Below are positions 1 to 18,459 of a stretch of 64,000 nt of DNA, piece by piece. A program made the translations under genes and the position numbers. The notes below the pieces were generated by a model. The model saw only the letters and a program-made list of their open reading frames with translations, was not told the DNA's origin and did no database searches. Origin of the DNA: Oscillatoriales cyanobacterium (GTDB lineage: Bacteria > Cyanobacteriota > Cyanobacteriia > Cyanobacteriales > Microcoleaceae); the NCBI GenBank assembly GCA_004293365.1, contig RDYN01000046.1, positions 1 to 64,000 of the forward strand, read 5' to 3'. The stretch's first letter is position 1, and each line of letters begins with the position of its first letter.

Positions 1-3000
1 GCAGCGCCATCAAATCCACCACAGACACGCGACCGGTGTCCCGCAGAGTCACGTAGGCGCGGGTAGCATTGTTAGTAGGCGCGATCGACTCCGGTCGGTC
101 TGATGTATTGGGATTACCTACAGGAATGTTAATAGCAACCGCCAATTTATCGCTGCTCTGGGTTTCAACAGTTGATAAAGGGTCTTTGAGGTTAATAACG
201 TTGATTTTGTCGCCCGTGCGTTCTGTTACCAGTGCCAATTCAACGCAGGTAGGAGCGAGGCGGATATTTTCTTCACTTTCTAGTTCGACAGTCTCGTAAT
301 CTCCAGTACCCGGCCCGAAGCGCTTTTTCTGCTTCCTCGACACTACAATGCTGGATTCGCCGAGGGGTACGGTAATCGGAATTTTGACAGCAATTTTGTA
401 GCTATTTTCTCCCAAATCGGTGTTTTTATCCGGTATCAATGTGCCTGGATAAGTTTTGTCGCCGACGCGGAAGCTGACTGTTAAGTCTTTAAATTCACCG
501 CCTAAATCATTGGAGTTATTCAGGAAGTTGCTGCCTGTCAGGACGACGGTTGGTTCGCCATTTTCCAACTTATATTCAGCGGATTGAAGCACTGGAGGTG
601 CGAAGGGGTCTGCTGGGAATAGTGTGGGTATGTTTAGAGTGGCTGTGACGCGGGGAATCCCTTCTGGGTCGAGTTCTACACCCGCCGGAGTGACTACAGG
701 TAAGCCGACTTCAGGAATGGCGATAATTTTCAATCCAGATTTCAGGTATTTAGCCAAGTAAGCCAGCAGTAAAATTGTAGCGGCGAATTGAGCTGTGGTG
801 ACGGCGGCTATACCGATTAAACCGGCATTGGCTGCTAAAAAGCTGTTTTGGAGACCGACATTTGTTGAGAGAAGGGAACCATTTTGGAGACCGACATTTG
901 TTGAGAGAAGGGAACCATTTATATTGGAGGTGGTGAGCAACTTTTCCAATGCCAACTTCTGTAACTCCAGGTCCGGCATTGCTATCATCGCTATTTCGGC
1001 AGTCTCCAAAATACCGGTAAATGGTGGAGAATTAGTGCGAATAGTACCGCTGGCATCGACTACACCGGATTCTTGAATCAGCCAAATTGGAGAATAAATA
1101 TTGTTAGCATCCGGCAGCGAACCTTTTCGCAGGAATAAAATTTCGGTACCAGGAGATAAGCCGGCAGGGGCAGGAATTGCTAATTGAGCGGGAATTTTCA
1201 AGGAGTTGTCGCCCAAGTCTAAATTAAAGCCTCCGGCAAACTGCAAACCGTCGGGAAGTTGTAGCGATAGATCATTGCTGGTTAGAGATGTCAAGCTAAT
1301 AGCTGTATTTTCGGCAAGAGCACCGGGTGGCACCATCACAATTGAACCGTCACTGCCAGTAACAGCACCGCCATTTACTCCTAAAATTGTTCCGGCGGCG
1401 GCAGGAAGGGAGACTCGTACTGGCACGACTTGTTCGGCTGCTCCGTGAATGACGGTGACGTTAGTAACTCCTTCTTCTATTGCAGTTATAATGCCGTCTG
1501 AATTCACTTGCAATAAGTTGGAGTTTCCGGGGAAATAGCGAGTTCCTGTAGAGCCGAATTTCAGATCGGGGGATTTGATGATATTTTCAATTCCTACTAA
1601 AAGCGAGCGTCCCATTCCGGCTGTCATTGTGACTGCTTTGGGATAGACATTCAAACCGTTAATCTCAGCTAGTGCTCCATTAAATTCTGCATCGTTGGTT
1701 GGGGCTGGCAATTTTCCAACTCGCACCGCTGTTACTGCTTGCAGGTTGTTGCGACTCGCGCTCAAAATCGAAGTGCCGTTGACCAAACCCGTCACTTTCC
1801 CGGTCGCGTCAATGGGTGCTACTTCTGGATTTATTGAAGTGTAAGTTAGATAAGAATCTGGCAGCACTACACCTTTTTGGTCGGCAAAATCTCCCAGCAC
1901 AACTAATTCCGTATTTTCTCCTGCATCCAGTCGGGGATTTCGCTTCACAAAATCTAGATTCAGCAGCGGAACATCGCTGACGTTGACTGTCACCCGCGCG
2001 GGCGTTGAACTCCCAAAAGCGTCGCTGGCAAGGAAATCAAAGCTGGCAATTCCAGAGAAACCGGTTGCTGGTTTAAACGATGCTTTGTTAGTTAAGGGAT
2101 TGAAAATTACTGTGCCGTTTACTGGATTGAGGACGCTAATTGTCAGAGGGTCGCCTTCTGCATCTGTGGCAAGATTTTCTAATGAAATAGTTGTCTCTAA
2201 TTCTGTGTAAGTCCGAGCGCTTGTCGGTGAAACAACGGGCGGATTGTTGTCAGAATTCGGGGGATTCGCTTCGGCGAGCAATTGTTGTCCCAGAGTCGTA
2301 TTGCGCCATTCTTTGTCAGGGTTGATGACTGTATCTAGCAGCGGTGCGTTTCCGGTTGCGCCACTAATTTTAAAGATTAGGTCATTGTAATCTCTGTCTG
2401 AGTTAGCGGATGACATATCTTCGAGGGCAAAGGTGTTACCGCTGCCCGTAATGTCGGCTATTTGTAGCAGATGAGCGGTATCGTTGGGATTGGCTGTGGC
2501 GATACTGAATAAGGGACGGTTTTCGGGAAACAAATCCCACAGCCAGGAGTATTGGAGGGATGATTGTACTGTACCGCTGGGTACGAACATGACGGCAAAA
2601 GTGTCTCCAGGGGTCATGTTGAAAGTTTTGATACCCTGATATTCTCCTGAACCAAAGTCGTATTCTCCCGGCATCGAACCGGTGAATTTTGCTCCTTCTG
2701 CACTGTCGCGGATTACAACGTTTCCTAATGTGGAATTAGTTAGGACTCTCCTAGCAGCTTCGGCGATGAATTCTGGAGTACCAGGTGTAAATGTTTCCAT
2801 TCCTGAAAGACTAAAAATGCCGACTTCGCCAGTAAAGTAGCCGCCGTCAAACTGATAGTCAAATTTGACTTGTCCTTGGTCATCTACAAGGAAAGTGCCG
2901 GGAATGGGTGAGTTGGCTGCTGCTGTTATTGAGAAATTTGTTGGGGTATTGGTATTGGTGTGAGAGTCGCCGATACGCTGTGTTGGATTGAGTTGAGTGT

Positions 3001-5242
3001 CTGCAATATTGTCTAGACTTTGAGCAGATTCTTCGGTTTCTGACAGCAGTAAATCGCTGGTTATCTCTGCGGATTGTGGCCCATCAGAATACGCAGGTAG
3101 AACAGCGACAGTTTCTGTTGAATTTGAATTGCTATTATAGTTTGAAGTTGGTTCATGTGGGGATTTAAGAGTTGAGGGTGAAGCGCTTGTTTCGACTTCT
3201 GCTATCTGTGTCGTAACTGCTGCTGTCTCTGATGGAGTTGAGAAGAGTGCTGGGCTTTTCTCAGTTTCTAATTCCGCTGCTGTGAAGGAAACAGTAATGT
3301 TCCGTTCGATTGTATCAGCAGTGAATTCTGCTGTCGAAACCGAATCGGTTTTTGTTGGCAATTCGCTTTCAAGTTCTGATGTTATTTCAGGAAAAGCGTT
3401 CTCATTTTCTAGCGTAGCCGAATCGTTTTTTGTGGAAATAATTGACTCGGTTTTTGTTGGCAATTGTTCGGGTACGGTAGAAACGTTGGAGTTGCTTTGT
3501 TTGGGTGATTGTTCGCCAACGTTAGAGACAAGCGACTCTGTTATTGCAGGAGACTTTTCCGCAATTGGAGCGATAACTGACTCGGTTTCTGCGGGAGGTT
3601 GAGAGATGCTGGAAGTTGCATCTTTGTCGGTTTTGATTAATTCAGCATCTGCTGATTGACTGACAATAGATTCTGTTTTAACTGGCTGTTTAATTTCCGA
3701 AACTGAGTCAGTATTGTTCGGAGTTTTTTCTGGGGTTTTAACTGCTGTTGCTGCTGTCGTCACCGCTACATTTTCACTGGCTGGTGTTTTTGGTATTGTA
3801 GCAGGTTCGATTTTTAATGGGTCAACTTTTCCTGTATCATTCTGTTTGTCAGTTAAAGATTGAGTAGCGGTTTGTACTGGCTTTTGTAAATCGGTTGATT
3901 TGACTTCTGCACTGATATTAGTGTCAGGTAAAACTGGGTTAGATGTGGCTGGAATTAATTGGGCTGTTGGGGGCTGTGTTGTCGGCGGAAGTTGAGAATT
4001 TGAAGTGAGTTTTTCTGTCGGTGTTGCATCGATTGTTGGGGATTTTTTGTCTGAGTCTATCAGGGTAGCTTCGGCAACAGGAAGCTGTTTGTCTGAGTTT
4101 TTTGTTTCTGAAGTCTGGGCAATTGGAGCTTTTTTATCGGAGTCTATTTTGTCAGAAACTTCGGCAGTACGAGATTGTTCGCCTGAGTTGGCTTTCTCCA
4201 CAATTGTGGAGTTTTGAGATTGCTTGTCTGAGTCTATCTTGTCGTCAGTTGTGGCAACTGGGGACTGTTTGTCTGTAGAGGTTTTATCAGTCGATGGAAT
4301 ATTTGGGCTAGCCGCAACAGTTTCGGTTAAATTTGTTACTGCAATTTTCTCGGATTTTTCTGATGAAGTTGTACTGCGATCTGGTATTATGGTTGATGCA
4401 GTTGTAGGTGATGTTTTTTTCGGCTCTGAGCTATCGGCGGTTGACGCAGTTGCAGGTGATGTTTTGTTCGGCTCTAAGTTGTCAACCGTTGATACAGTTG
4501 CAGGTGATGTTTTATTGGGTTCTGAATCACTTTTGAGTGTAGCCCCTGACGATAAGAATGTTTTGTTATCTTCGGGTTTTGAACTCGTTTCAGGGGTTGC
4601 GGGTAATGGTGTTTTTTCCGAAGCTTTTTCTAAGTTTGTGGATGTAGTTATAACGGGTAATGTTTTGTTATTTTCTTTTTCTGAGTTGGTAACTCCGGTT
4701 GGGAGTAATTGTGTTTTATTTTCAGGTAATTTATCACTTGCAGTGGTTGTAGCAGGTGTGGTTTTATTAATTTCTGAGTTACTGACTAACGAGCTGATTG
4801 CAGGTGGGTGAGGAACGGGTTTATTAGAGTCAAAAGGCTCGCTATTTGAGGCAGTTGGATTCGGGTTTGTCAGGGGATCTCCTAATTCCGAGTCGAGTTT
4901 GCCAATTAGAAGGTCAATTTCAGAAGTTGTTGAATCCCTGGAGTAGCTGTTAGTTTTGGTGGCACTGGTTTTAGCAGAAGGTATGCTGTTAATATCGGAG
5001 GCTTTGTTAGTAATAAAAGCATCGGTTTCGGCTCGAATGAATTCGGATTGTGGCGGCTTTGCGGTTTCTATTAAGTTAGGTTGTTCAGAGTTTGATGAAG
5101 AGCCAGGAGTTTGATATAATAAGGTTTTGTTAGTCTGAATTCCCGGCAGTTGTGGGGCAAAAGTTGGGGCAAGTCCGGGAATTAAGGATTCCACTTCTGT
5201 TAAAGGTTCTCTAATCGGGTCGGTTAAAGGCACTCTGGACAC
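1..5242 (-). CDS. Giant DUF4114 surface/secreted protein, 3' end outside window
   Basis: The minus strand is open from a GTG at 5240-5242 to the window edge (1747 codons visible, partial). An in-frame TAA lies nine codons upstream, and no ATG is available near the N-terminus. Residues about 1-680 are low complexity, rich in Ser, Thr, Pro, Lys and Glu. Residues about 775-985 form a DUF4114 domain, shown by the pair FALEDM and DRDYNDLIF that closes this calcium-binding-type beta domain. A cadherin/tandem-95-like domain follows (about 997-1090, with TDAEGDPL), then Big_2-like domains (about 1094-1270) and, at the visible end, YVTN-like propeller blades (AYVTLRDTG, VSVVDL). No classical signal peptide is visible at the N-terminus, so type I or another non-Sec export is more likely. 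It resembles the first half of the calpain mosaic gene at 10419-16118. Surface or extracellular function is an inference; no enzyme domain is seen in this part. Confidence 0.85.
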   Translation of the reverse strand, partial: MSRVPLTDPIREPLTEVESLIPGLAPTFAPQLPGIQTNKTLLYQTPGSSSNSEQPNLIETAKPPQSEFIRAETDAFITNKASDINSIPSAKTSATKTNSYSRDSTTSEIDLLIGKLDSELGDPLTNPNPTASNSEPFDSNKPVPHPPAISSLVSNSEINKTTPATTTASDKLPENKTQLLPTGVTNSEKENNKTLPVITTSTNLEKASEKTPLPATPETSSKPEDNKTFLSSGATLKSDSEPNKTSPATVSTVDNLEPNKTSPATASTADSSEPKKTSPTTASTIIPDRSTTSSEKSEKIAVTNLTETVAASPNIPSTDKTSTDKQSPVATTDDKIDSDKQSQNSTIVEKANSGEQSRTAEVSDKIDSDKKAPIAQTSETKNSDKQLPVAEATLIDSDKKSPTIDATPTEKLTSNSQLPPTTQPPTAQLIPATSNPVLPDTNISAEVKSTDLQKPVQTATQSLTDKQNDTGKVDPLKIEPATIPKTPASENVAVTTAATAVKTPEKTPNNTDSVSEIKQPVKTESIVSQSADAELIKTDKDATSSISQPPAETESVIAPIAEKSPAITESLVSNVGEQSPKQSNSNVSTVPEQLPTKTESIISTKNDSATLENENAFPEITSELESELPTKTDSVSTAEFTADTIERNITVSFTAAELETEKSPALFSTPSETAAVTTQIAEVETSASPSTLKSPHEPTSNYNSNSNSTETVAVLPAYSDGPQSAEITSDLLLSETEESAQSLDNIADTQLNPTQRIGDSHTNTNTPTNFSITAAANSPIPGTFLVDDQGQVKFDYQFDGGYFTGEVGIFSLSGMETFTPGTPEFIAEAARRVLTNSTLGNVVIRDSAEGAKFTGSMPGEYDFGSGEYQGIKTFNMTPGDTFAVMFVPSGTVQSSLQYSWLWDLFPENRPLFSIATANPNDTAHLLQIADITGSGNTFALEDMSSANSDRDYNDLIFKISGATGNAPLLDTVINPDKEWRNTTLGQQLLAEANPPNSDNNPPVVSPTSARTYTELETTISLENLATDAEGDPLTISVLNPVNGTVIFNPLTNKASFKPATGFSGIASFDFLASDAFGSSTPARVTVNVSDVPLLNLDFVKRNPRLDAGENTELVVLGDFADQKGVVLPDSYLTYTSINPEVAPIDATGKVTGLVNGTSILSASRNNLQAVTAVRVGKLPAPTNDAEFNGALAEINGLNVYPKAVTMTAGMGRSLLVGIENIIKSPDLKFGSTGTRYFPGNSNLLQVNSDGIITAIEEGVTNVTVIHGAAEQVVPVRVSLPAAAGTILGVNGGAVTGSDGSIVMVPPGALAENTAISLTSLTSNDLSLQLPDGLQFAGGFNLDLGDNSLKIPAQLAIPAPAGLSPGTEILFLRKGSLPDANNIYSPIWLIQESGVVDASGTIRTNSPPFTGILETAEIAMIAMPDLELQKLALEKLLTTSNINGSLLSTNVGLQNGSLLSTNVGLQNSFLAANAGLIGIAAVTTAQFAATILLLAYLAKYLKSGLKIIAIPEVGLPVVTPAGVELDPEGIPRVTATLNIPTLFPADPFAPPVLQSAEYKLENGEPTVVLTGSNFLNNSNDLGGEFKDLTVSFRVGDKTYPGTLIPDKNTDLGENSYKIAVKIPITVPLGESSIVVSRKQKKRFGPGTGDYETVELESEENIRLAPTCVELALVTERTGDKINVINLKDPLSTVETQSSDKLAVAINIPVGNPNTSDRPESIAPTNNATRAYVTLRDTGRVSVVDLMAL
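847..918 (-). repeat. Perfect 36-bp tandem duplication inside the giant protein
   Basis: Two identical 36-bp units (847-882 and 883-918) lie head to tail. They encode the 12-residue peptide GSLLSTNVGLQN twice on the minus strand. Being a multiple of three, the duplication keeps the reading frame, unlike the 35-bp duplication in the calpain mosaic gene. Confidence 0.9.
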
Positions 5243-8314: not shown

Positions 8315-9442
8315 CTAACCTTCGGTTGTTTCTAGGCCGAATACTCGATCGAACACTTTAGTCACTTTATAGCCGGAATCTATGGATTCGAGCGGGTCTT
8401 TCCGCAAACGGTGGCGCAAACAGAGAGTCATTACCTTGCGAATATCGTCTACAGTGACCTCTGTGCGGCATTCTAGGGCGGTGTAAGCTTTTGCGGCCCG
8501 ATTTGTGACTAAATCGCCCCGCAGCCCGTCTACGTCCAATTCCGCGCAGACTTGGGAAATTTTTACTCGCAAATCGCGATCGAGATTTACGGATTTTAAT
8601 CTTTCTTGGGCTTCCACCAATTTCTGCTGCATATCGTCTTGTTGGTGCTGATATTTGGCGAGAAACTCGGGCGGATCTTGATCGAAACTCGATCGCTGTT
8701 CGACAATTTCTACTCTCAGATTAGGATCTTTTACAGTGCGAATTTCGGCGTGCATTCCGAATCTGTCGAGCAATTGCGGCCGCAATTCTCCTTCTTCTGG
8801 ATTACCGGAACCGATTAAAATAAATTTAGCCGGGTGGCGGATTGAGATGCCTTCTCTTTCAACAGTATTCCAACCGCTGGCGGCGGAGTCGAGCAAAACA
8901 TCGACTAAGTGATCGTCGAGCAAATTGACTTCATCGACATAAAGAATGCCGCGGTTGGCTTTAGCTAAAAGGCCTGGTTCAAAAGCTTTCACACCTTCGG
9001 ACAAAGCTTTCTCGATGTCGATCGTACCGCAAACTCGGTCTTCGGTAGCGCCGAGCGGCAAGTCTACCATTTGTACTTTTTTGCGGGCGATCGGCATTGT
9101 ACCGTGATGCAAAGTGCGATCGCGCACCTCATCGCTCATCAAATCGGGATCGGTGGGATGGCTGTTAAAAGGATCGTCAGCCACGACTTCAATTTCTGGC
9201 AGTAAATCTGTGAGGGCGCGGATTGTGGTAGATTTGCCTGTACCGCGATCGCCCATAATCATCACGCCACCAATTTTGGGATCGATGACATTCAAAAGCA
9301 GCGCCAGTTTCATCTCCTCCTGGCCAACAATCGCAGTGAAGGGAAAAACAGCGCGGCGGGCTGCGGTGGCGGTAACGGTTGGCAGAGCGCCCGCATTTAC
9401 GTTATTGCTGACTTCGGCAGTAGGAATCACAGGATAACTCAA
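8315..9442 (-). CDS. chlI: Magnesium chelatase ATPase subunit I
   Basis: This protein of about 375 residues is the AAA+ subunit that, with ChlD and ChlH, inserts Mg2+ into protoporphyrin IX, the first committed step of chlorophyll synthesis. Seen are Walker [10 protein letters not shown] (about residues 64-72), Walker [12 protein letters not shown], the sensor segment [21 protein letters not shown], and the C-terminal lid with RNLR-like basic residues. The N-terminal start is ambiguous: TTG at 9440-9442 gives [10 protein letters not shown], while GTG at 9428-9430 has a TTGAG element about 7 bases upstream and may be the true start. No partner chl gene lies next to it. Confidence 0.95.
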
Positions 9443-9804
9443 AATATAATAATTGCCTGTTTATTGTAAGGGATAAGGGATTTTAGATTTTAGATTTTAG
9501 ATTTTGGATTTTGGATCCGATCGAACTGCTTTACATAACAAAACTCAGATTTTTTGTCAACCCTCCCAGGCCCGAAAGTTGCGAGCGATCGGCCCCACAC
9601 CACCAGCGCTACCGCCGCCAGCTTTGGGAATCGCATTCCCAGGTAGCAAGGGCGCGAAACCTTCGCGAATGGTAGCTATCCCCTAGGGAATCGCACCCTA
9701 TTGTAAAGAAATGTAACGATTTTCCGGAATTTGCATAAAAAACTTCAGTTCGCCCAGATAGATAATCAAGAGCACTTTGAAGCAACTATTTTTCAGGGGT
9801 AAAA
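9443..9804. other. Intergenic stretch between chlI and the calpain mosaic region
   Basis: It holds a TTTTAGA-type simple repeat (9480-9515), then a segment with GGGAATCGCATTCCC-like short palindromes around 9625-9710. A leader similar to that upstream of 10419 follows (TTTTCAGGGG before the ATG at 9805). No supported gene is present. Confidence 0.6.
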
Positions 9805-9921
9805 ATGGCTGAACTTAATATCGGGGCGTTGACTGACGGCAAAAGCTACACCGGTAGTGTCGGTACTGCAAATATCTACGACCTTTACAAATTTAACATC
9901 ACGAGTCCGGGAAGTTTTTAA
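9805..9921 (+). pseudogene. Truncated copy of the 5' end of the PPC/calpain gene
   Basis: The 38 codons MAELNIGALTDGKSYTG... through NITSPGSF, then TAA, are nearly identical to the start of the gene at 10419, differing at only a few positions (DG versus DS, NIT versus NIN). The match breaks at GGAAGTTT, where the reading runs into TAA in a separate short repeat. The upstream leader (TTTTCAGGGG, spacing about 5) is also shared, which supports ATG 10419 as the true start of the full gene. This is a partial tandem duplication of the promoter-proximal end; whether the 38-residue peptide is made is unknown. Confidence 0.8.
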
Positions 9922-10071
9922 AAATTATACGGGCATTGTAAAGTTTCTGTAAAGTTTTTACTCTATTTAATTATGACATACAACAACAGTCCGGGAAGTT
10001 TCAAAAAATTATACGGGCATTGTAAAGTTTCTGTAAAGTTTTTACCCTATTTAATTATGACATACAACATC
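9904..10071. repeat. Two 84-bp direct repeats at the break of the truncated copy
   Basis: Two near-identical units (starting 9904 and 9988) begin AGTCCGGGAAGTTT. They then leave the gene sequence for a shared segment with ATACGGGCATTGTAAAG and TTAATTATGACATACAAC. The second unit starts with CAACAGTCCGGG, closer to the intact gene. They mark the duplication junction. The rest of 10072-10418 is AT-rich, non-coding leader with no further structure recognised. Confidence 0.8.
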
Positions 10072-10418
10072 TCAGGTAACAACTCCCGTATTCATACGTA
10101 TTGCTTTTTTTTTTGCTGTTTGATAATATGAAAACCAAGGTGAAATTTGGATTGAGGTCTGAAGCCCTGGCAAATATCACTAAAGCTTTTTCACAAACAA
10201 CTCTCACACTTCTCTGCTTCAGTGAAGCAGGAAAAACTCTGCCGTGAAACTTTCAGTTTTTGGAAAAATTTCTAGGATATCGAAATGCTAAAAAAACGCA
10301 GAGGAGACAACATAAAAACATAAGAGGGCGATCGATTCTCCACAACTCAAACTGATTCTACTCAAATTCAATAGATATTTGAGGAAGTTTTAAACAAATT
10401 ATATTTCAGGTGTACAAA

Positions 10419-11087
10419 ATGGCTGAACTTAATATCGGGGCGTTGACTGACAGCAAAAGCTACACGGGTAGTGTTGGTACTGCAAATATCTACGACCTTT
10501 ACAAATTTAACATCAACAGTCCGGGAAGTTTCAAATTTTCGATCGACAATTTAAGCGGAAACGCCGACATATTTTTATTGGACAACAGCGGCGCAACACT
10601 TTACAGTTCAACCAATGCGGGAACAGCAGCAGACACAATTAGCGCTGACAGCTTAATTGCCGGAGACTATACACTCAAAGTTGTACAAATTAGTGGCGAC
10701 ATCAAATACAGGCTGAATTTAGCAGAAACTAACACTCAACAAGCAGCAGCAGACACCCTCACCGGAGCCAAAGCAGACGATCCGCTTGTCGCAAAAAGCG
10801 CCACAAATCCCGAACAACAAACAGCGAATAAAGATGCAATTACAGGAGAACCTATTGAGGAGAAGACTGTCACCGCAGCACCACCAGCAACTACCGAAGT
10901 TAGTGCAGGTTCCGAAACAACTACCAAATCCAAAACAGAACCACCTGCAACATTAACAACAGCAACAGTTACCACAACAAATAGCACGACACAAGTTAGT
11001 GCAGGTTCCGAAACAATAGCACGACACAAGTTAGTGCAGGTTCCGAAACAACTACCAAATCCAAAACAGAACCACCTGCACCATTAA
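10419..11087 (+). CDS. PPC-domain N-terminal fragment of calpain mosaic gene (frame broken)
   Basis: The ATG at 10419 (MAELNIGALTD) is chosen over the GTG at 10410 because the duplicate at 9805 starts at the same codon. Residues 1-105 match a bacterial pre-peptidase C-terminal (PPC) beta domain: YDLYKFNI, FSIDNLSGNADIFLLDNSG, and the YTLKVVQISGD strand. A Thr/Ser/Ala/Lys linker made of near-repeats (STTQVSAGSETTTKSK) follows. A 35-bp tandem duplication at 10982-11051 shifts the frame and the product would stop at 11087. Deleting one 35-bp copy would fuse this frame with the one that continues into DUF4114. No Sec signal is seen, so any export is probably by another route. Confidence 0.75.
   Translation: MAELNIGALTDSKSYTGSVGTANIYDLYKFNINSPGSFKFSIDNLSGNADIFLLDNSGATLYSSTNAGTAADTISADSLIAGDYTLKVVQISGDIKYRLNLAETNTQQAAADTLTGAKADDPLVAKSATNPEQQTANKDAITGEPIEEKTVTAAPPATTEVSAGSETTTKSKTEPPATLTTATVTTTNSTTQVSAGSETIARHKLVQVPKQLPNPKQNHLHH
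10982..11051 (+). repeat. 35-bp tandem duplication that breaks the reading frame
   Basis: Two exact 35-bp copies (10982-11016 and 11017-11051, each starting TAGCACGACACAAG) lie in the linker. Because 35 is 3n+2, the reading frame changes at the second copy. Loss of one copy would restore PPC-linker-DUF4114 continuity. This could be a slipped-strand switch, a decaying gene, or an assembly error. Confidence 0.9.
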
Positions 11088-11521
11088 CAACAGCAACAGT
11101 TGCCGCCACAACAAATAGCACGACACAAGTTAGTGCGGGCAGCACTTCGGCAATTTCCACCGCTGAAACAACCAGCAAAACTGCTACCGCAAACACTCCT
11201 ACTAGCACTGCAGGCACAACAGATATTGCCGCTAAATCAGGCGAGAATGTAGCTGCTGCCCTGGATTCTGGCCAGCCATCCGACAAAACTAATACCGCTA
11301 CCAATAACGGGGAAGAGACCAAAAAAGAAACTACAAATAGTTCGATCGCGACTGCCGAAACAACAAAAGAAAGCAACTCACCGACTAACAAACCAATAAC
11401 AGCAGCCAACCCTTTTACATCCGGTAAATTTGTTGTTGATTCTACGGGGAAAGTCAGCATCGATTATCTATTAGATGGTGGCTTCTATCGCGGTCAACTA
11501 GCGATTATCAGCCTCAAAGGG

Positions 11522-13057
11522 ATGGAGAAGTTTGTACCCGGATCGGCAGAGTTTTTGAAAGAAGCTGCGGGTCGGGCACTGAGCAACTCTGAAAAAGGTC
11601 ACATAGTTATCGACGATTTGAGCGAAGGTGCGAGATTTTCAGGTAATTTACCCGAAGGTAATTTTAACGAGGGATCTCACTTAGGAGTCAAGACGTTTGC
11701 GATGACTCCCGGTGATGAATTTGGCTTCATGCTCGTACCGAACGACACGGTAAAATTCCTGTACGACTATCCCGGTTTCGGGGGCGATAAACGTCCTTTA
11801 TTCTCGATGGTAACCGCTAATCCGAACGAAGCATTTCATTTGGGTCAACTTGCCGATCTTACCGGAGAAGGGAATACCTTTGCTATGGAGGATATGCGGT
11901 TCGATTTAGGGACTGATAAGGATTACAACGATATTATTTTCCAAGTGCGCGGTGCTAAAGGTAAAGCTGCTTTGATGGATGATGTAGTAAACCCGAATAA
12001 GGATTGGCGGAAAACTGATTTGGGCAAGCAAGTGCTTGATTACGCTACAGGGAAGGTGGTGAAAGATCCGGTAACAGATAAGCCGATCGCCGAGCCGCCG
12101 GTGGTGAAAGATCCGGTAACAGATAAGCCGATCGCCCAGCCACAGGTTGTGAAAGATCCGGTAACAGATAAGCCGATTTCCGAGCCGCCGGTGGTGAAAG
12201 ATCCGGTAACAGATAAGCCGATCGCCGAGCCGCCGGTGGTGAAAGATCCGGTAACAGATAAGCCGATTTCCGAGCCGCCGGTGGTGAAAGATCCGGTAAC
12301 AGATAAGCCGATTTCCGAGCCGCCCGAGCCACAGGTTGTGAAAGATCCGGTAACAGATAAGCCGATTTCCGAGCCACAGGTTGTGAAAGTTCCGGTAACA
12401 GATAAGCCGATTTCCGAGCCGCCGGTTGTGAAAGATGCGGTGCAAGATCGGCCGATCGCCGATGAGCCAAATATCAAAAATCCGGTGCAAGATCGGCCGA
12501 TCGCCGATGAGCCAAATATCAAAAATCCGGTGCAAGATAAACCGATTTCCGAGCTATCGGTTGTGAAAAATCCGGTGCAAGATAAACCGATTTCCGAGCT
12601 ATCGGTTGTGAAAAATCCGGTGCAAGATAAATCGATTTCCGATGAACCAATTATCAAAGGATCGGTGCAAGATATGCCGCCCGAAGCTGAACCAACAGTC
12701 AAACATAAAATTGATCCATCGTCGCAAAAACTAGCTGTATTCAGTGCTCCAATATCATCATCTTCTCCAAACTCGGCACCGGTAGTAACTGCTAGCAATC
12801 AAACAGTAAATGCTGGTGCAAGTATCAGCCCGAGTTTCTCTGTAAGTGACGCAAATGGCGATCGGATCAGCAATTACTATTTCTCAGATTTAAACAGCAG
12901 CAGCACGAGCGGTTACTTCACCATTAACGGTGTGAAACAAACCAAGGAATTCACGATACTTGCAGAGCAATTGAGTAACGTGCGTTTTGTCGGCGGTTCA
13001 GTTGCAGGTACCGACTCTGTTTCGATCGCCGCTTATGATGGTAAAGTTTGGCGGTAG
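11522..13057 (+). CDS. DUF4114 and VKDPVTDKPI-repeat fragment of calpain mosaic gene
   Basis: The frame is open from the 35-bp duplication (about 11017), and coding similarity clearly extends upstream of the ATG at 11522 (FVVDSTGKVSIDYLLDGG belongs to the same DUF4114 domain), so this ATG is not a natural start. DUF4114 spans roughly 11410-11970 with MEDMRFDLGTDKDYNDIIFQ, parallel to the giant protein at 1-5242. Next come 14 units of about 15 residues (12058-12720), a short hinge, and the first of seven repeats of about 100 residues (VVTASNQTVNAG, DANGDR, LSNVRFVGGS). The frame ends at 13057 because about 46 bp between two repeats is missing, relative to the intact junction at 13310-13370. 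Confidence 0.75.
   Translation: MEKFVPGSAEFLKEAAGRALSNSEKGHIVIDDLSEGARFSGNLPEGNFNEGSHLGVKTFAMTPGDEFGFMLVPNDTVKFLYDYPGFGGDKRPLFSMVTANPNEAFHLGQLADLTGEGNTFAMEDMRFDLGTDKDYNDIIFQVRGAKGKAALMDDVVNPNKDWRKTDLGKQVLDYATGKVVKDPVTDKPIAEPPVVKDPVTDKPIAQPQVVKDPVTDKPISEPPVVKDPVTDKPIAEPPVVKDPVTDKPISEPPVVKDPVTDKPISEPPEPQVVKDPVTDKPISEPQVVKVPVTDKPISEPPVVKDAVQDRPIADEPNIKNPVQDRPIADEPNIKNPVQDKPISELSVVKNPVQDKPISELSVVKNPVQDKSISDEPIIKGSVQDMPPEAEPTVKHKIDPSSQKLAVFSAPISSSSPNSAPVVTASNQTVNAGASISPSFSVSDANGDRISNYYFSDLNSSSTSGYFTINGVKQTKEFTILAEQLSNVRFVGGSVAGTDSVSIAAYDGKVWR
12058..12720 (+). repeat. Fourteen 45-bp units encoding VKDPVTDKPI-type peptide
   Basis: The units run VVKDPVTDKPI followed by AEPP, SEPP or AQPQ. They diverge towards the 3' end into VQDRPIADEP and VQDKPISELS forms. 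One unit carries an extra three residues (EPPEPQ). The 5' units are almost identical in DNA, indicating recent expansion or conversion. The alternating Pro, acidic and Lys pattern suggests an extended spacer. Confidence 0.9.
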
Positions 13058-13326
13058 TAACTGCTAGCAATCAAACAGTAAATGCCGGTGCGAGTATTAC
13101 CCCGAGTTTCTCTGTTACGGACGCGGATGGCGATCGGATCAGCCATTACTATTTCTCAGATTTAAACAGCAGCAGCACGAGCGGTTACTTCACCCTTAAC
13201 GGTACGAGACAAAACGGCCCATTTACGATACTTGCAGAGCAATTGAGTAACGTGCGTTTTGTCGGCGGTTCAGTTGCAGGTACCGACTCTGTTTCGATCA
13301 TGGTAAAGTTTGGGCCGGTAAAGTAG
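13048..13326 (+). pseudogene. Second ~100-residue DxDGD repeat, isolated in its own frame
   Basis: This piece codes one repeat module (VVTASNQTVNAG, TDADGDR, LSNVRFVGGSVAGTDS) in a third frame. It is entered through the missing 46 bp near 13050 and left through a missing 10 bp near 13299: the preceding copy reads TCGATCGCCGCTTATG where this one reads TCGATCATGG. It has no start signals of its own and is best read as part of the 10419-16118 composite. Confidence 0.75.
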
Positions 13327-16118
13327 TGACGATGACTACTCAAAAAGTCAATCAGGCGCCGGTAGTAACTGCTAGCAATCAAACAGTAAATGTCGGTGCG
13401 AGTATTACCCCGAATTTCTCTGTAACTGATGCCGATGGCGATCGCATCAGCCTGTACTATTTCTACGACCAAAATACCAGCAGCACTAGCGGTTATTTTA
13501 CCGTTAATGGCGTCCAACAAACCAGCGGATTCTCTGTAACTCCCGAACAGTTGAGCACCGTGCGTTTTGTTGGCGGTTCAGTTGCAGGTACCGACTCTGT
13601 AACCATCTATGCTTCTGACGGTCAAACTTGGGGTTCTCAAGCAGTTACGATGACTACAAAAGCCAATCAGGCGCCGGTAGTAACTGCTAGCAATCAAACA
13701 GTAAATGTCGGTGCGAGTATTACCCCAAATTTCTCTGTAACTGACGCCGATGGCGATCGCATCAGCCTGTACTATTTCTACGACTCAAATACCAGCAGCA
13801 CTAGCGGTTATTTCACCGTTAATGGCGTTCAACAATCAAGTGCATTCTCTGTAACTCCCGAACAGTTGAGCACCGTGCGTTTTGTTGGCGGTTCGGTTTC
13901 AGGTACCGACTCTGTAACCATCTATGCTTCTGACGGTCAAACTTGGGGCTCTCAAGCAGTTACGATGACTACAAAAGCCAATCAGGCGCCGGTAGTAACT
14001 GCGACCAATCAAACAGTAAATGCTGGTGCGAGTATTGTCCCCAATTTCTCTGTAACTGACGCCGATGGCGATCGGATCAGCCTGTACTATTTCTTAGACT
14101 CAAATACCAGCAGCACTAGCGGTTACTTCACTCTTAACGGCGTTCAGCAATCAAGTGCATTCTCTGTAACTCCCGAACAGTTGAGCACCGTGCGTTTTGT
14201 CGGCGGTTCAGTTGCAGGTACCGACTCTGTAACCATCTATGCTTATGACGGTCAAACTTGGGGTTCTCAAGCAGTTACGATGACTACAAAAGCCAATCAA
14301 ATACCATTCGTAACTGTCAGCGACCAAACTGTGCGCCGCAGTCAAACCATTCAGCCATCTTTTGGCGTCACCGATGCTGATGGAGACAAAATTACTCGCT
14401 ACGCTTTTTACGATAACAACAACAGCAGCACAAGCGGTTATTTCACGGTTAATGGTGCCGCGCAAGCTGCCGAGCAAACTTTCTACGTGGATGCGGATAA
14501 GCTGAGTACAGTTCGTTTTGTTGGCGGCAGCACTGCGGGCAGCGATTATGTGTACGCGCGAGCCTATGACGGCACTGATTGGAGTAACTGGAACGGCTAT
14601 ACCATCCAAACTCAAGCTGGTTCTACTCCCACAGTCAGCGCCAGCGACCAAACCGTGACAGCCAATGAGTCAATTAAACTATCCTTGAGCGCCACTGATG
14701 CTGATGGGGACAAAATTACTAGCTACAAATTCTACGATGCCAACACCAGCAGCACCAGCGGTTATTTCACGGTAAATGGCGCCGCGCAAGCTGCCGGTCA
14801 AACCTTCTACGTGGATGCGGACAAGCTGGATACAGTGCGTTTTGTTGGCGGTACAGCAGTCGGCGCGGATGCGGTATATGTGGCTGCTGCTGATGGAGTT
14901 GACGGTTGGGGTGCTTGGAAGCCGTTTAATGTTTCTACATCAGCGGCTGCTGATTGGTTTGAGAAAAATATTAAAGATTTGGCGATTCGTTCCTTGGCCC
15001 GATCGCGCTTTCAAGATGGTTGGCTCGATCGCCAAGACATGATAGACATCTTCAGGGATGCCAAAGACGGCGGGGTAGTAGATGCTAACGAGTTTGCTGA
15101 CCTCCAGGCTTTAACCAAGAACACTGACTTCATCAAAATGCCGGATCACGTGCGGGTATTGTCTGCCAAAATTGCTGAAGGAAACCCAGCCAACAACAGC
15201 TATCAAGGCAGTTATTTGGGTAATTTGTACGCTGGTAGCAGTGACAACCAACTCGAAAAGCTGATTCAAGAACACTTCTTCGGGGGCGATCGTCCATTAC
15301 CGCTCGGAGAGTATTCCTACGGCAGCGCATCCAATGTTGTGTATCGTTATGCTGAAGGCAATTTGTTCCTAAATGGCGTCAGTTACGAAGATGTCAGACA
15401 AGGAAGCGTCGGGGATTGCTATTACTTGGCATCCTTAGCCTCTGTTGCGCTAAAGACACCAGATGCCATTCGAGAGATGTTTATCGACAATGGCGACGGA
15501 ACTTACACAGTGCGTTTCTTTAACAAGGGTAAGGCTGACTATGTAACAGTCGATCGGTATTTACCTGTTAATAGCGATGGAACCCTTCCCTTTGCCAAAG
15601 TGGGCAAAGGTAAAAAATACGATGATTCAACCAATGAGTTGTGGGTCGCTTTAGCTGAAAAAGCCTATGCTCAGATGAATGAAGCGAGCTGGCTTGGTCG
15701 ATTGTTGTTGGTTCCAGGAACTACCGATCAATATGTTAACCTCAACGGACTTAACAGCTACAAAGGCATTGAAAATGGTTGGAGTGGTTATTCTACAGAT
15801 CACATTAGCAACAAAAAAGGTACTGCTGATTGGATACAATCATCTACACCTAATACAGTAGTTGACGCCTTCAATTATGGAAAAACAATAATCTTTAGCT
15901 CTAAGGATTTTGATTCCACCAAATTATCTAATGTAGTTGACAATCATGCTTACACAATGGTTGGCTACAATCAAGCTACTGGACTGTTTAAACTGTTTAA
16001 TCCTTGGGGAGTGGAAGGCGAATTATATTGGAGTGATTTCACTTTTAAACCGGGAATCATAGAATTAACTTGGAACCAGATACAAAGATACTTTAGCCAG
16101 TGGACGGTGAATGGTTAA
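13326..16118 (+). CDS. Calpain-type cysteine protease with DxDGD repeats (C-terminal part of mosaic gene)
   Basis: The 930-residue open frame is in the same phase as the gene start at 10419. Five modules of about 105 residues (residues about 1-530) repeat VTASNQTV, TDADGDR/K, SSTSGYFT and RFVGGS; the DADGD motifs suggest calcium binding. An EF-hand-like segment (DAKDGGVVDANEF, about residues 578-590) precedes the protease. The calpain (peptidase C2) core is intact: Cys698 in GSVGDCYYLASLAS, His874 in DNHAYTMVGYN and Asn892 in LFNPWG. The probable ancestral product is one protein of about 1900 residues beginning at 10419. As it stands the ATG at 13326 overlaps the previous stop (ATGA) and has no convincing ribosome site. 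A calcium-activated extracellular protease is inferred. Confidence 0.85.
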   Translation: MTMTTQKVNQAPVVTASNQTVNVGASITPNFSVTDADGDRISLYYFYDQNTSSTSGYFTVNGVQQTSGFSVTPEQLSTVRFVGGSVAGTDSVTIYASDGQTWGSQAVTMTTKANQAPVVTASNQTVNVGASITPNFSVTDADGDRISLYYFYDSNTSSTSGYFTVNGVQQSSAFSVTPEQLSTVRFVGGSVSGTDSVTIYASDGQTWGSQAVTMTTKANQAPVVTATNQTVNAGASIVPNFSVTDADGDRISLYYFLDSNTSSTSGYFTLNGVQQSSAFSVTPEQLSTVRFVGGSVAGTDSVTIYAYDGQTWGSQAVTMTTKANQIPFVTVSDQTVRRSQTIQPSFGVTDADGDKITRYAFYDNNNSSTSGYFTVNGAAQAAEQTFYVDADKLSTVRFVGGSTAGSDYVYARAYDGTDWSNWNGYTIQTQAGSTPTVSASDQTVTANESIKLSLSATDADGDKITSYKFYDANTSSTSGYFTVNGAAQAAGQTFYVDADKLDTVRFVGGTAVGADAVYVAAADGVDGWGAWKPFNVSTSAAADWFEKNIKDLAIRSLARSRFQDGWLDRQDMIDIFRDAKDGGVVDANEFADLQALTKNTDFIKMPDHVRVLSAKIAEGNPANNSYQGSYLGNLYAGSSDNQLEKLIQEHFFGGDRPLPLGEYSYGSASNVVYRYAEGNLFLNGVSYEDVRQGSVGDCYYLASLASVALKTPDAIREMFIDNGDGTYTVRFFNKGKADYVTVDRYLPVNSDGTLPFAKVGKGKKYDDSTNELWVALAEKAYAQMNEASWLGRLLLVPGTTDQYVNLNGLNSYKGIENGWSGYSTDHISNKKGTADWIQSSTPNTVVDAFNYGKTIIFSSKDFDSTKLSNVVDNHAYTMVGYNQATGLFKLFNPWGVEGELYWSDFTFKPGIIELTWNQIQRYFSQWTVNG

Positions 16119-16152
16119 GGTATTTCATACCACCCCTGCTTCCTAGTTAGTT

Positions 16153-16190
16153 GACAAGTGACTGGGAAATCTTTTCTCAGTCACTTGTTT
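16153..16190 (+). terminator. Hairpin terminator after the calpain gene
   Basis: Inverted arms ACAAGTGACTGGGAAA and TTTCTCAGTCACTTGT (one mismatch) are separated by a few bases and followed by TTTGA. The position, 35 bp after the calpain stop and 30 bp before the foldase ATG, fits a factor-independent terminator. Confidence 0.7.
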
Positions 16191-16220
16191 GAATCATTGA
16201 AAACTTAAAATCCGAAAAAC

Positions 16221-16982
16221 ATGGAATCTATTGATTTCTTAAAAGTCAACAACCAAAGCATTTCTCTCAGTCAAGCCATTGGCTATCTCAAGGCTTCGGG
16301 CAAATTTGGCTTGTTTTTAGCAGAAATTTTGCGCCAGCACATTTTAGAACATGAACTGAAGGAAGTTGAAGCCATTGATATTGATGTGGCCGAGTTAGAA
16401 CAAGCAATTGTAAATTTTCGGATAGAAAAGCAATTGCTAGACGGGCAAATTTTTCAAAACTGGCTGGCAAAAAATGGGATCGGTTATGGCGAGTTCCGGC
16501 AAGGAGTCACCAATGACCTAAAGTTAGAAAAGCTGAAAGCTAAGATTGGCGAACCGAAACTAGAGGAATATTTTAAGGCGCAAAAGCCTTTCTTCGATCG
16601 CGTCGTTATCTCCCGCATTATTGTCAGCGATCGAGAACTCGCCAACAAACTCAAAGAAGAAATATTAACCGAAAAAAAAACATTTGAAACTTTAGCAAAA
16701 GAGTATTCTTTCACCGATGACCGAATATTTAATGGGATGATGGGTGCTGTGAGTCGTGGCACTTTGCCTGATATCCTGAAAGAGCGTGTGGATTTTGCTC
16801 AGGCTGGGGAAATTATTGGACCGATCGAAATTGAAGGGCGTTACGGTTTATTTCGCGTGGAACAATTCCTAGATGCTTCGTTGGAAGATGGAAAACTCAA
16901 ACAAGAATTACAAAATCAGTTGTTTGAACAGTGGTTGCAAGAAAAGCTGCAAAGCATGGAGATTAAATTAGAGGTTAAGTAG
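16221..16982 (+). CDS. PpiC-type peptidyl-prolyl isomerase (parvulin family)
   Basis: This 253-residue protein has a helical N-terminal part (about 1-110, SurA/trigger-like chaperone module) and a PpiC rotamase domain (about 128-225). Landmarks are RVVISRIIVSDREL, TFETLAKEYSFTDDR, GMMGAVSRGTLPD, and AGEIIGPIEIEGRYGLFRVEQ. There is no signal peptide or lipobox, so it probably acts in the cytoplasm. It follows the calpain mosaic gene after a terminator. Soluble parvulins of this shape are often found beside genes for exported multi-repeat proteins or type I secretion genes in cyanobacteria, so a role as a dedicated foldase for the neighbour is an inference. Confidence 0.8.
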   Translation: MESIDFLKVNNQSISLSQAIGYLKASGKFGLFLAEILRQHILEHELKEVEAIDIDVAELEQAIVNFRIEKQLLDGQIFQNWLAKNGIGYGEFRQGVTNDLKLEKLKAKIGEPKLEEYFKAQKPFFDRVVISRIIVSDRELANKLKEEILTEKKTFETLAKEYSFTDDRIFNGMMGAVSRGTLPDILKERVDFAQAGEIIGPIEIEGRYGLFRVEQFLDASLEDGKLKQELQNQLFEQWLQEKLQSMEIKLEVK

Positions 16983-17096
16983 TTGACTTGCAAGGTTCAA
17001 GGTGCGATCGCACTTTCCCTTATCCGAGAGTGCGAGATCCCTTGAAGTCGAGAAAATTTGCCATAATTGAGATACAGTAACTGGGAGGATGAATCT

Positions 17097-17540
17097 ATGT
17101 ACGCAACTTCCGACAAATCAATGGGCAAAGTTTTAGTTACGCTGACAGTTACCAATCGTGCCGACCAGTCCGCTGCTGCACGGGGATTCATTCCAACTGA
17201 GGAAATACGTTCGATCACCCTAGATAACGTGGTGGTAGATACCGGTGCTACTACATTATGCCTGCCTCCAGGGGCGATCGCCCAACTCGGCCTCGAACTG
17301 CTTAAAGAAGTGGATGTGGCCACCGCAACGGGACTCAGCAAAGCGCGCATCTTTCAAGATGCTAAGATTTCACTTTGCGGTAGAGAAGGCACTTTTGAGT
17401 GCCTGGAATTACCCGGAGGGCGAGATGCTTTAATTGGCGTAATTCCTCTCGAAGCCCTCGGTTTAGAACCAGATTTGCGCCACCAAACTTTAAAGGTTTT
17501 ACCCTCGGAATCTGTCGATACTTATTTGACGATTATGTAG
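17097..17540 (+). CDS. Small clan AA (retropepsin-like) aspartic protease
   Basis: The 147-residue protein starts at ATG 17097, preceded by GGGAGG at 17083-17088. A longer TTG start at 17067 would place that ribosome site inside the gene. The single-lobe aspartic protease signature VVDTGATTLCLP (about residues 48-59) supplies the catalytic Asp of a homodimer. A downstream hydrophobic strand with DALIGVIPLEALGL corresponds to the second ILG-type motif of the family. No transmembrane segment is visible. Substrate is unknown; proteins of this size are common in cyanobacteria, often near small toxin-antitoxin genes as here (17682-18321). Confidence 0.75.
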   Translation: MYATSDKSMGKVLVTLTVTNRADQSAAARGFIPTEEIRSITLDNVVVDTGATTLCLPPGAIAQLGLELLKEVDVATATGLSKARIFQDAKISLCGREGTFECLELPGGRDALIGVIPLEALGLEPDLRHQTLKVLPSESVDTYLTIM

Positions 17541-17681
17541 CTGATTTTTTTTGTCGAAAGAGCGATCGCAATTCCTACCCAGTCCCGCAACAACGAAAAA
17601 AAATTATCTCGTCAATTCACAGTCATGACACAACAATGTTCTGTGCGTACCAGGAGTCGGCAAGCATGGCAACCGCTTTAG

Positions 17682-18014
17682 TCAAATAAACTCTAGATGG
17701 TTTTGCATATCCGACGGTTCTAGTACCTCCCAAATCAAAATTAAACCGCGCACAATTTCACCAAGTGAACGACTATTTTGGTGGCAGTAAACAATACCAG
17801 AATGCTCTAAACCGCGCTGATGAATTGCTAAAAAATCGTCGTCCTGGGTAAATATTACTCGCTGTTGAGAAATCGCGAAAGCTAATTGTTCTTCATCAAC
17901 TGCACCTAAAAGTCCTGCTTCTGGTGTAGTTGTGACATCAATACCTCGCCTTCTCAAAGCTTCTGCGATCGCCCGTTCGACTTGCTCATCAAAGTGAAAT
18001 CGTATCTTGTCCAA
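17682..18014 (-). CDS. DUF5615 PIN-like protein (putative toxin)
   Basis: This 110-residue protein has the PIN-like DUF5615 layout: FHFDEQVERAIAEALRRRG at the start supplies the first acidic residue, VDEEQLAFA the middle one, and VIFTQDDDFLAIH the conserved TxDDDF motif. Such proteins are considered nuclease-type toxins or relatives. Its start overlaps the end of the DUF433 gene by 26 bp (17989-18014), showing translational coupling, and the order antitoxin-then-toxin is normal for this pairing. Confidence 0.8.
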   Translation of the reverse strand: MDKIRFHFDEQVERAIAEALRRRGIDVTTTPEAGLLGAVDEEQLAFAISQQRVIFTQDDDFLAIHQRGLEHSGIVYCHQNSRSLGEIVRGLILIWEVLEPSDMQNHLEFI

Positions 18015-18321
18015 GATTCTGCCCTCTTAATTTCTGTTGCACCTTGGAAGGATTTTTTGCTTGCAATTCCTGGACAAAAGCTTCACTATCTCGTATTTGT
18101 TGCCGGATTTCCTCAAAATGGTCGTGGTAATAAGTCAATGCTGCATATACATCCGCTAGGGTGATTGTGGGATGCCGCGACACAATTTCATCAGGAGACA
18201 TACCCATTTTTTCATGCCAAATGACCACATCTTGAACCCTAATTCGATGCCCAGCAATGCGGGGTTTGCCACCGCATACTCCGGGAGTAATTTCAATATG
18301 TTCTGCAATCACTGCTGTCAT
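17989..18321 (-). CDS. DUF433 antitoxin-like protein
   Basis: This 110-residue protein opens with the DUF433 signature ITPGVCGGKPRIAGHRIRVQDVV, a winged-helix-like DNA-binding module, followed by MSPDEIVSRHPTITLADVYAALTYY. It lies first in a two-gene unit with the DUF5615 protein and overlaps it by 26 bp. DUF433 proteins usually repress their own operon and neutralise the partner; that is family knowledge. A second, partnerless DUF433 gene is at 61402-61695. Confidence 0.85.
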   Translation of the reverse strand: MTAVIAEHIEITPGVCGGKPRIAGHRIRVQDVVIWHEKMGMSPDEIVSRHPTITLADVYAALTYYHDHFEEIRQQIRDSEAFVQELQAKNPSKVQQKLRGQNLGQDTISL

Positions 18322-18459
18322 ATAATTTCCTCAAAATTCAAGTGAGCATCTATATTAGTTTATCCCAAACCAGGTCTACTTGACAATTAGGGCGATCGCC
18401 ATGAAACGATATAAGGATTATTGTATATGAACAAATAACCAATAACCAATAACTAACAA

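What the first reader, a model, noticed from the sequence alone, without database searches (positions are those of the whole stretch)
10419..16118. Calpain mosaic gene with three frame-changing indels that together restore the frame
PPC-linker-DUF4114-VKDPVTDKPI repeats-seven DxDGD modules-EF-like-calpain is split over three frames by a 35-bp duplication (+35), a missing ~46 bp and a missing 10 bp. Each changes the frame by the same step, and the sum (-21) is divisible by three, so start and calpain catalytic core are in the same phase. The protease triad (Cys, His, Asn) is intact, which is unusual for a decaying gene. Either the gene varies its frame through repeat recombination, or it decayed very recently, or assembly of a repeat-rich locus is wrong.
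Basis: seen in the sequence. Interest (0 to 1): 0.75.

Follow-up and report, generated by a model that had tools for sequence, protein, structure and literature searches.

The report
Recently broken giant calpain effector gene
A very large cyanobacterial gene for a probably secreted calpain-type protease has been broken by three reading-frame changes, and its two nearest relatives are broken in other ways, so the intact-looking protease at its end is best read as the remains of a recently lost gene at a site where such genes swap their business ends.

Summary
PPC, DUF4114-to-module 1, module 2, and modules 3-7 plus calpain lie in frames 0, 2, 1 and 0. The breaks are an exact 35-bp direct repeat at 10980-11051 and module spacings of 272 and 308 instead of 315. 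The restored phase means little: the start frame meets 47 stops first. Intact homologues show PPC, linker and DUF4114 in one frame. The two nearest calpain relatives found are also broken, differently: G011 by a 7-bp tandem repeat in the same linker, G193 by an insertion sequence. Catalytic residues are intact, strict neutrality on the window branch is rejected, and 1887 coding-frame codons hold no stop, so loss is probably recent. The first half of the gene matches a same-site allele in draft genome G014 ending in subtilase, GH19 and SH3 domains; the second half and a PPIase match G011. Other DUF4114 giants end in EndoU, ADP-ribosyltransferase or CHAP domains. Best reading: a recently inactivated, chimeric allele of a tip-swapping, polymorphic-toxin-like protein family. 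Reversible frame switching is possible, best for G011, but unproven; misassembly of the window is not excluded.

The parts
8315..9442 (-). Left flank: ChlI-like gene (name recalled from sequence, no family search run on it), 375 aa; marks the variable site
   Evidence: matched in 6 of 6 genomes probed, 87-97% nt identity
9690..9921 (+). 5' stub: upstream region plus a 38-codon copy of the gene start (ATG 9805, stop 9919-9921)
   Evidence: matches gene starts in G014, G011, G006
9904..10069 (+). Two tandem copies of an 84-bp element between the stub and the second start; the matching stretch in G014 appears as one copy
   Evidence: (period 84, 2.0 copies, 96% matches)
10419..11087 (+). PPC domain and start of linker, frame 0
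   Evidence: PPC 1.5e-9
10980..11051 (+). Lesion 1: exact 35-bp direct repeat in the Thr-rich linker; frame 0 to frame 2
   Evidence: linker comparison with G014
11000..13057 (+). Frame-2 block: rest of linker, DUF4114, VKDPVTDKPI-type array, module 1; first start codon in this frame is 11522, inside the DUF4114 region
11702..11953 (+). DUF4114 domain
12055..12679 (+). 45-bp (15-residue) repeat array; no match in the loci compared
   Evidence: (no similarity 12300-12699 to L212, L011, L063)
12758..13057 (+). Module 1, shortened at its end (lesion 2, about 13050)
   Evidence: spacing 272
13045..13326 (+). Module 2, frame 1, shortened near 13309 (lesion 3)
   Evidence: spacing 308
13326..16118 (+). 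Modules 3-7, EF-like stretch and calpain domain, frame 0, 930 aa from a GTG
15360..16037 (+). Calpain (Peptidase_C2) domain; Cys 15417, His 15945, Asn 15999
16221..16982 (+). PpiC-type peptidylprolyl isomerase gene next to the calpain gene
17668..18389 (-). Right flank shared with G014: two small genes (DUF433 / DUF5615-like, names recalled from sequence)
   Evidence: 85.5% over 723 bp to L212

Best explanation
The stretch is a recently inactivated, chimeric allele of a giant, probably secreted protein gene: PPC, repeat linker, DUF4114, repeats, cadherin/Ig-like modules, calpain tip, followed by its own PpiC-type isomerase. In intact relatives this is one frame. Shown: the frame breaks, intact homologues, different breaks in the two nearest relatives found, same-site exchange of the C-terminal half against G014, and conserved catalytic residues. 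Inferred: that translation from 10419 stops at 11087 so that no calpain product is made, that the ancestral protein was exported with help from the isomerase, that it acted as an effector against other cells, and that the allele is a dead end lost recently (by selection or by drift in culture). The linker and the near-identical modules break often because they are repeats; the equal phase of the two ends is accidental.
For: 47 frame-0 stops between the PPC and calpain frames. One-frame homologues: G014 2061 aa, G006 2622 and 2745 codons, G122 1857 and G138 1952 codons with DUF4114 and calpain in one frame. Nearest calpain homologues broken otherwise: G011 by a 7-bp tandem repeat in the same linker; G193 by an insertion sequence (6 copies at 100%, DDE transposase, 14-bp flanking repeat). 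Four-sequence calpain test: omega = 1 on the window branch rejected, 2 delta lnL 23.6; omega 0.34 there, 0.23 elsewhere, difference not significant (2.6). No stop in 1887 codons; a rough bound of 0.016 neutral substitutions per site since loss. Same-site allele swap with G014: similarity up to about 12050, none at 12300-17499, again from 17500. Another DUF4114 gene of the same genome is broken in its linker by a 62-bp tandem repeat.
Against: Conserved triad and low omega also fit a gene still in use. A free-ratio model fits better than one omega (lnL -3925.75 against -3940.64) and puts 0.56 on G011 and 2.7 on a very short G193 branch, so the rates are not simple. Pairwise window-G011 omega is fairly high for calpain (0.37) and modules 6-7 (0.62), so constraint may have weakened earlier. 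The neutral bound ignores indels. No expression, reads or second isolate were available. G014, the key same-site comparison, is 86% complete with 7% contamination and has two chlI-like hits. G122 and G138 are only 58% and 50% identical in the calpain domain. G180 and G083 could not be judged because of N gaps.
Confidence: 0.7

Rival explanations
1. Assembly or sequencing error in a repeat-rich locus of a draft genome; the real gene is one frame.
For: G000 is a 218-contig draft; other drafts have N gaps inside repeats of this family; all three lesions lie in or beside repeats.
Against: No N in the gene. Lesions 2 and 3 do not remove whole repeat units. The same linker is broken in G011, assembled in 6 contigs. 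No read data could be examined.
Confidence: 0.15
2. Phase variation: tandem repeats in the linker whose length is not a multiple of three switch expression of the DUF4114-calpain part off and on.
For: Three linker breaks in this family are two-copy tandem repeats of 35, 7 and 62 bp; in G011 it is the one break seen between PPC and the calpain end; such repeats can in principle be lost again.
Against: Only two copies each, unlike known contingency repeats (recalled). Two other confirmed linker breaks, G011:C3c and G040:C425, are one-base changes, so breakage is not special to repeat number. The window has two further breaks. No mixed population was seen or could be sought.
Confidence: 0.09
3. 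The pieces are made as separate polypeptides by reinitiation: the module-2 stop overlaps a GTG that begins the 930-aa modules-calpain frame.
For: TAG at 13324-13326 overlaps GTG 13326; module 2 has a TTG at 13048 just before the previous stop.
Against: The first start of the DUF4114 frame is 11522, over 430 bp beyond the PPC stop and inside the domain region; homologues do not share these starts because they are in one frame.
Confidence: 0.04
4. Programmed ribosomal frameshifting joins the frames.
For: Overlapping frames at the linker in both G000 and G011.
Against: The needed step differs between the two (step 2 in G000, step 1 in G011), and no classical slippery site was seen by eye in the overlaps.
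Confidence: 0.02

Closest known systems
Cyanobacterial calpain homologues (MEROPS C2), including the DUF4114-calpain protein K9TN70 of Oscillatoria acuminata PCC 6304 (Rawlings 2015, PMC4631099, passages seen)
   Same: C-terminal calpain domain with Cys, His, Asn; DUF4114 upstream in K9TN70; PPC domain in other members; patchy occurrence
   Different: Broken into frames; PPC, DUF4114, a 15-residue repeat array and modules in one locus; adjacent PPIase. PMC4631099 and PMC9380684 have no hit for 'pseudogene' or 'frameshift'
Polymorphic toxin systems (Zhang et al. 2012, PMC3482391, passages seen)
   Same: Long proteins with shared N-terminal parts and different C-terminal enzymes (EndoU, ART, CHAP, GH19, calpain); same-site exchange of the C-terminal half
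   Different: No immunity gene identified here; export route unknown; no hit for 'DUF4114' or 'calpain' in the first 300,000 of 357,715 characters held of that paper
TIGR04500 PpiC-related peptide maturation proteins
   Same: Window PPIase matches over residues 6-248 (E 2.5e-25)
   Different: 89 bits against a cut-off of 180, so not a member by NCBI's rule; the cargo is a giant protein
Contingency (phase-variable) loci
   Same: Tandem repeats of non-triplet length within coding sequence
   Different: Two copies only, several other lesions, no evidence of switching

Membership tests
Calpain family (Peptidase_C2) | Family profile over curated cut-off | tested here: met
   75.5 bits against 23.8; m-calpain, PDB 1kfu, E 2.8e-12
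Calpain family (Peptidase_C2) | Cys, His, Asn triad | tested here: met
   6 of 6 aligned sequences; that these are the catalytic residues rests on alignment and known calpain biology
Calpain family (Peptidase_C2) | Proteolytic activity | not testable with these tools
   No experiment
Polymorphic toxin-like family | Shared N-terminal part with varied C-terminal enzyme domains | tested here: met
   DUF4114 giants examined end in or carry calpain, EndoU, ART-PolyVal, CHAP, GH19/SH3; one examined, L099, showed only S8 beside DUF4114
Polymorphic toxin-like family | Exchange of the C-terminal part at one site | tested here: met
   Window against G014, one pair; G014 is a draft with 7% contamination
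Polymorphic toxin-like family | Cognate immunity gene directly downstream | tested here: inconclusive
   Window and G011 have a PPIase there. A 165-199 aa ORF follows the calpain in several distant loci (e.g. L013, L014, L018, L071); two were scanned in Pfam and gave nothing above cut-off
Polymorphic toxin-like family | Toxic activity and secretion | not testable with these tools
   No experiment
Pseudogene | Frame disrupted relative to intact homologues | tested here: met
Pseudogene | Relaxed selection on its branch | tested here: inconclusive
   omega 0.34 against 0.23, 2 delta lnL 2.6; omega = 1 rejected: recent loss or continued function
Phase-variable contingency locus | Repeat-number differences within a population | not testable with these tools
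   One genome per species, no reads
TIGR04500 peptide maturation protein (the PPIase) | Score over curated cut-off | tested here: not met
   89.4 against 180 bits

The most novel reading that the evidence does not exclude
DUF4114 giants of filamentous cyanobacteria are a tip-swapping effector family, and their long repeat linker between the N-terminal domain and DUF4114 works as an off/on switch: non-triplet tandem repeats (7, 35, 62 bp) silence the whole effector end reversibly, so that each clone carries a varying set of active tips, calpain among them.
Probability: 0.1. Interest if true: 0.8.

Novelty: new variant of a known kind. Interest (0 to 1): 0.5.

Why it matters
Broken alone, the gene is a recent pseudogene and ordinary. 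What lifts it is the setting: the two nearest relatives found are broken independently, and the same site in a congener holds an allele with the same first half and a different enzyme end. That places bacterial calpains, whose role is unknown, in a setting that looks like contact or matrix warfare rather than house-keeping, and makes it testable through intact homologues. It also warns that a clean catalytic triad and equal phase of two ends do not show that a gene is expressed.

Tried and rejected
Programmed frameshifting: rejected, the needed step differs between G000 and G011. An RNA element in the G193 insertion: no Rfam match in L063 4000-5800; it is an insertion sequence. The 5' stub as a lesion private to the window: rejected, G014 shares the layout. 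The idea that each frame-2 border is a chimera joint: rejected, the change of best match lies between about 12050 and 12700, inside the frame-2 block. A repeat-only mechanism for linker breaks: weakened, two of five confirmed linker breaks are one-base changes. Splits between the two DUF4114 copies in G010 and G022 could not be used because of N gaps; G041 has two ORFs there without N and was not resolved. First pairwise dN/dS for the G011 modules and calpain was run out of frame and was redone. A literature search on PPIase with type I secretion in cyanobacteria gave 0 papers; one on pseudogenes and giant genes gave 10 listings, none opened.

Survey counts, read by me from the listing: 76 DUF4114 stretches (70 fetched, plus L122-L125, L011 and the window). 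14 were set aside (8 without the motif, 3 cut at an edge, 3 with N in the linker). Of the 62 left, 5 have a linker break confirmed by comparison or by a tandem repeat (window, G011 calpain, G000:C67, G011:C3c, G040:C425), 5 break in or just before the DUF4114 domain, 7 are uncertain (L168, L173, L174, L176, L179, L183, L190), and 45 showed no break in this screen; those 45 were not inspected one by one.
Full report
1. Observation. The four reading frames and three frame changes exist as described. The PPC frame stops at 11087; the DUF4114 frame is open from 11000 to 13057; module 2 from 13045 to 13326; modules 3-7 with calpain from 13251 to 16118. The 35-bp repeat is exact, and the module spacings are 272, 308, 315 and 315. 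Pfam supports PPC, DUF4114, Ig/cadherin-like modules and Peptidase_C2; m-calpain is the best solved relative (E 2.8e-12). The start frame holds 47 stops from 11085 to 13248, so equal phase of start and calpain cannot give a fused product, and it arises by chance in about one of four triples of frame-changing indels.

2. Copies and relatives. The own genome (7.3 Mb, 218 contigs) has no second calpain hit: of the four matches, three are parts of this gene and one is a weak module match. With the calpain domain as query, 2 of 29 genomes of the genus (G000, G011), 6 of 61 of the family and 63 of 388 sampled from the order match. The nearest are G011 (74%), G193 (68%) and G180 (62%). G011 sits at the same site (ChlI-like gene before, PPIase after). 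From its chromosome length I recall it as Oscillatoria nigro-viridis PCC 7112, and G138 as O. acuminata PCC 6304; no tool named them.

3. Relatives are broken too. In G011 the PPC ORF (L011 7161-7796) is out of frame with a 1654-codon frame that carries DUF4114, modules and calpain; the cause is an exact 7-bp tandem repeat in its 102-bp linker units. In G193, a single-contig genome, module 1 is interrupted by an insertion sequence with six copies at 100%, a DDE transposase and a 14-bp flanking repeat. G122 and G138 keep DUF4114 and calpain in one frame. G180 and G083 have N gaps and were not counted. A more distant calpain gene in G348 also changes frame inside the protease.

4. Intact first halves and the swap. 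G014 has, at the same site, the same 5' stub, PPC, linker and DUF4114 in one 2061-aa frame, but then subtilase, GH19 and SH3 domains. Nucleotide similarity to the window is 79-91% in 400-bp steps from 8300 to about 12050, absent at 12300-17499, and 81-88% from 17500. From 12700 to 17099 the window instead matches G011 (73-87%) and G193 (70-78%). In G014 no PPIase-like ORF was seen between the gene and the right flank in an ORF list of at least 150 aa. So the window allele combines a G014-type front with a G011-type calpain and PPIase end. The window DUF4114 is 85% identical to a G006 gene but 61% to G011's, and its synonymous distance to G011 is saturated, whereas PPC (0.44), calpain (0.48), PPIase (0.60) and the ChlI-like gene (0.42) agree, which also points to mosaicism. 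Caution: G014 is 86% complete, 7% contaminated and shows two ChlI-like hits.

5. A family of tips. DUF4114 occurs in 21 of 29 genomes of the genus. Giants that I scanned carry EndoU (L122, E 8.2e-8), ART-PolyVal (L204, 7.5e-10), CHAP (L123, 1.2e-7), GH19 with SH3 (L212, 2.2e-6 and 1.9e-29) or only S8 beside DUF4114 (L099), besides calpain. EndoU and ART lie at the very C-terminus. This resembles polymorphic toxins. No immunity gene is shown. Searches on DUF4114 with cyanobacteria (7 papers), polymorphic toxin with cyanobacteria and calpain (1) and with EndoU (7) gave no title or abstract start describing this family; of these I saw passages of PMC4631099 and PMC3482391 only. Rawlings 2015 lists K9TN70 as DUF4114-calpain and does not treat the family as a toxin system in the passages seen.

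6. The isomerase. All 29 genomes of the genus have some PpiC-type match, but 78% and 43% relatives exist only in G011 and G006; the rest listed are 25-30%. In G006 it stands directly behind a linker-DUF4114-subtilase giant. In L014 a PPIase-like ORF (by eye) and a C39-ABC transporter lie next to a calpain gene. I infer a dedicated export or folding helper; NCBIfam TIGR04500 is hit below cut-off.

7. Selection and age. Pairwise omega between window and G011 is 0.28 for PPC, 0.37 for calpain, 0.62 for modules 6-7, 0.22 for the PPIase and 0.07 for the ChlI-like gene. On four calpain sequences (372 columns), the window branch has omega 0.34 against 0.23 elsewhere (2 delta lnL 2.6); omega 1 is rejected (23.6). 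A free-ratio model is better than one ratio by 29.8 in 2 delta lnL and gives uneven values, including 2.7 on a very short G193 branch. In 1887 codons no stop occurs; with a stop fraction of 0.0325, loss should be no older than about 0.016 neutral substitutions per site. Loss was therefore recent, unless the gene is somehow still used.

8. How common are breaks? In the genus-wide screen 5 of 62 judgeable DUF4114 stretches have a confirmed linker break: three tandem repeats (35, 7 and 62 bp) and two one-base changes. The 62-bp case is in the same genome as the window (G000:C67); its homologue in G007 is one frame through linker and DUF4114, though that gene ends early further on. Frequent loss, with repeats as weak points, explains this without a switch.

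9. Verdict. Recently inactivated chimeric allele (0.7). Misassembly 0.15, phase variation 0.09, separate polypeptides 0.04, programmed frameshift 0.02.

Noticed in passing
window 9690-10419: A 38-codon truncated copy of the gene start precedes the real start, with two 84-bp copies between; G014 has the same layout, so it may be an old leader arrangement.
   Followed up: partly
window 2-5242 (-): A second DUF4114 giant (frame open to the window edge) lies on the other side of the ChlI-like gene; homologues occur beside it in G007 and G016.
   Followed up: partly
L213 (G007) and L215 (G018), next to the ChlI-like gene: At the same site G007 has an AAA_21 ATPase gene followed by a second ORF (possibly RloAB-like, recalled), and G018 a similar-looking pair; the site looks like a variable or defence hot spot.
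   Followed up: partly
L099 (G006:C99): The PPIase relative stands behind a DUF4114-subtilase giant, so the isomerase is not tied to calpain.
   Followed up: partly
L013, L014, L018, L071 and similar loci: A 165-199 aa ORF follows distant cyanobacterial calpain genes, with an apparent lipoprotein-like start in some; possible inhibitor or immunity protein.
   Followed up: partly
L204 (G011:C3): A DUF4114 giant ending in ART-PolyVal is frame-broken in its linker by one base relative to a 97% identical copy, G011:C3a.
   Followed up: partly
G193 against Microcoleus-type G011 calpain: Calpain synonymous distance between different families (0.52) is as low as within the genus (0.49), suggesting horizontal exchange.
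   Followed up: no
L100 (G348): A PPC-calpain gene changes frame inside the protease domain.
   Followed up: no
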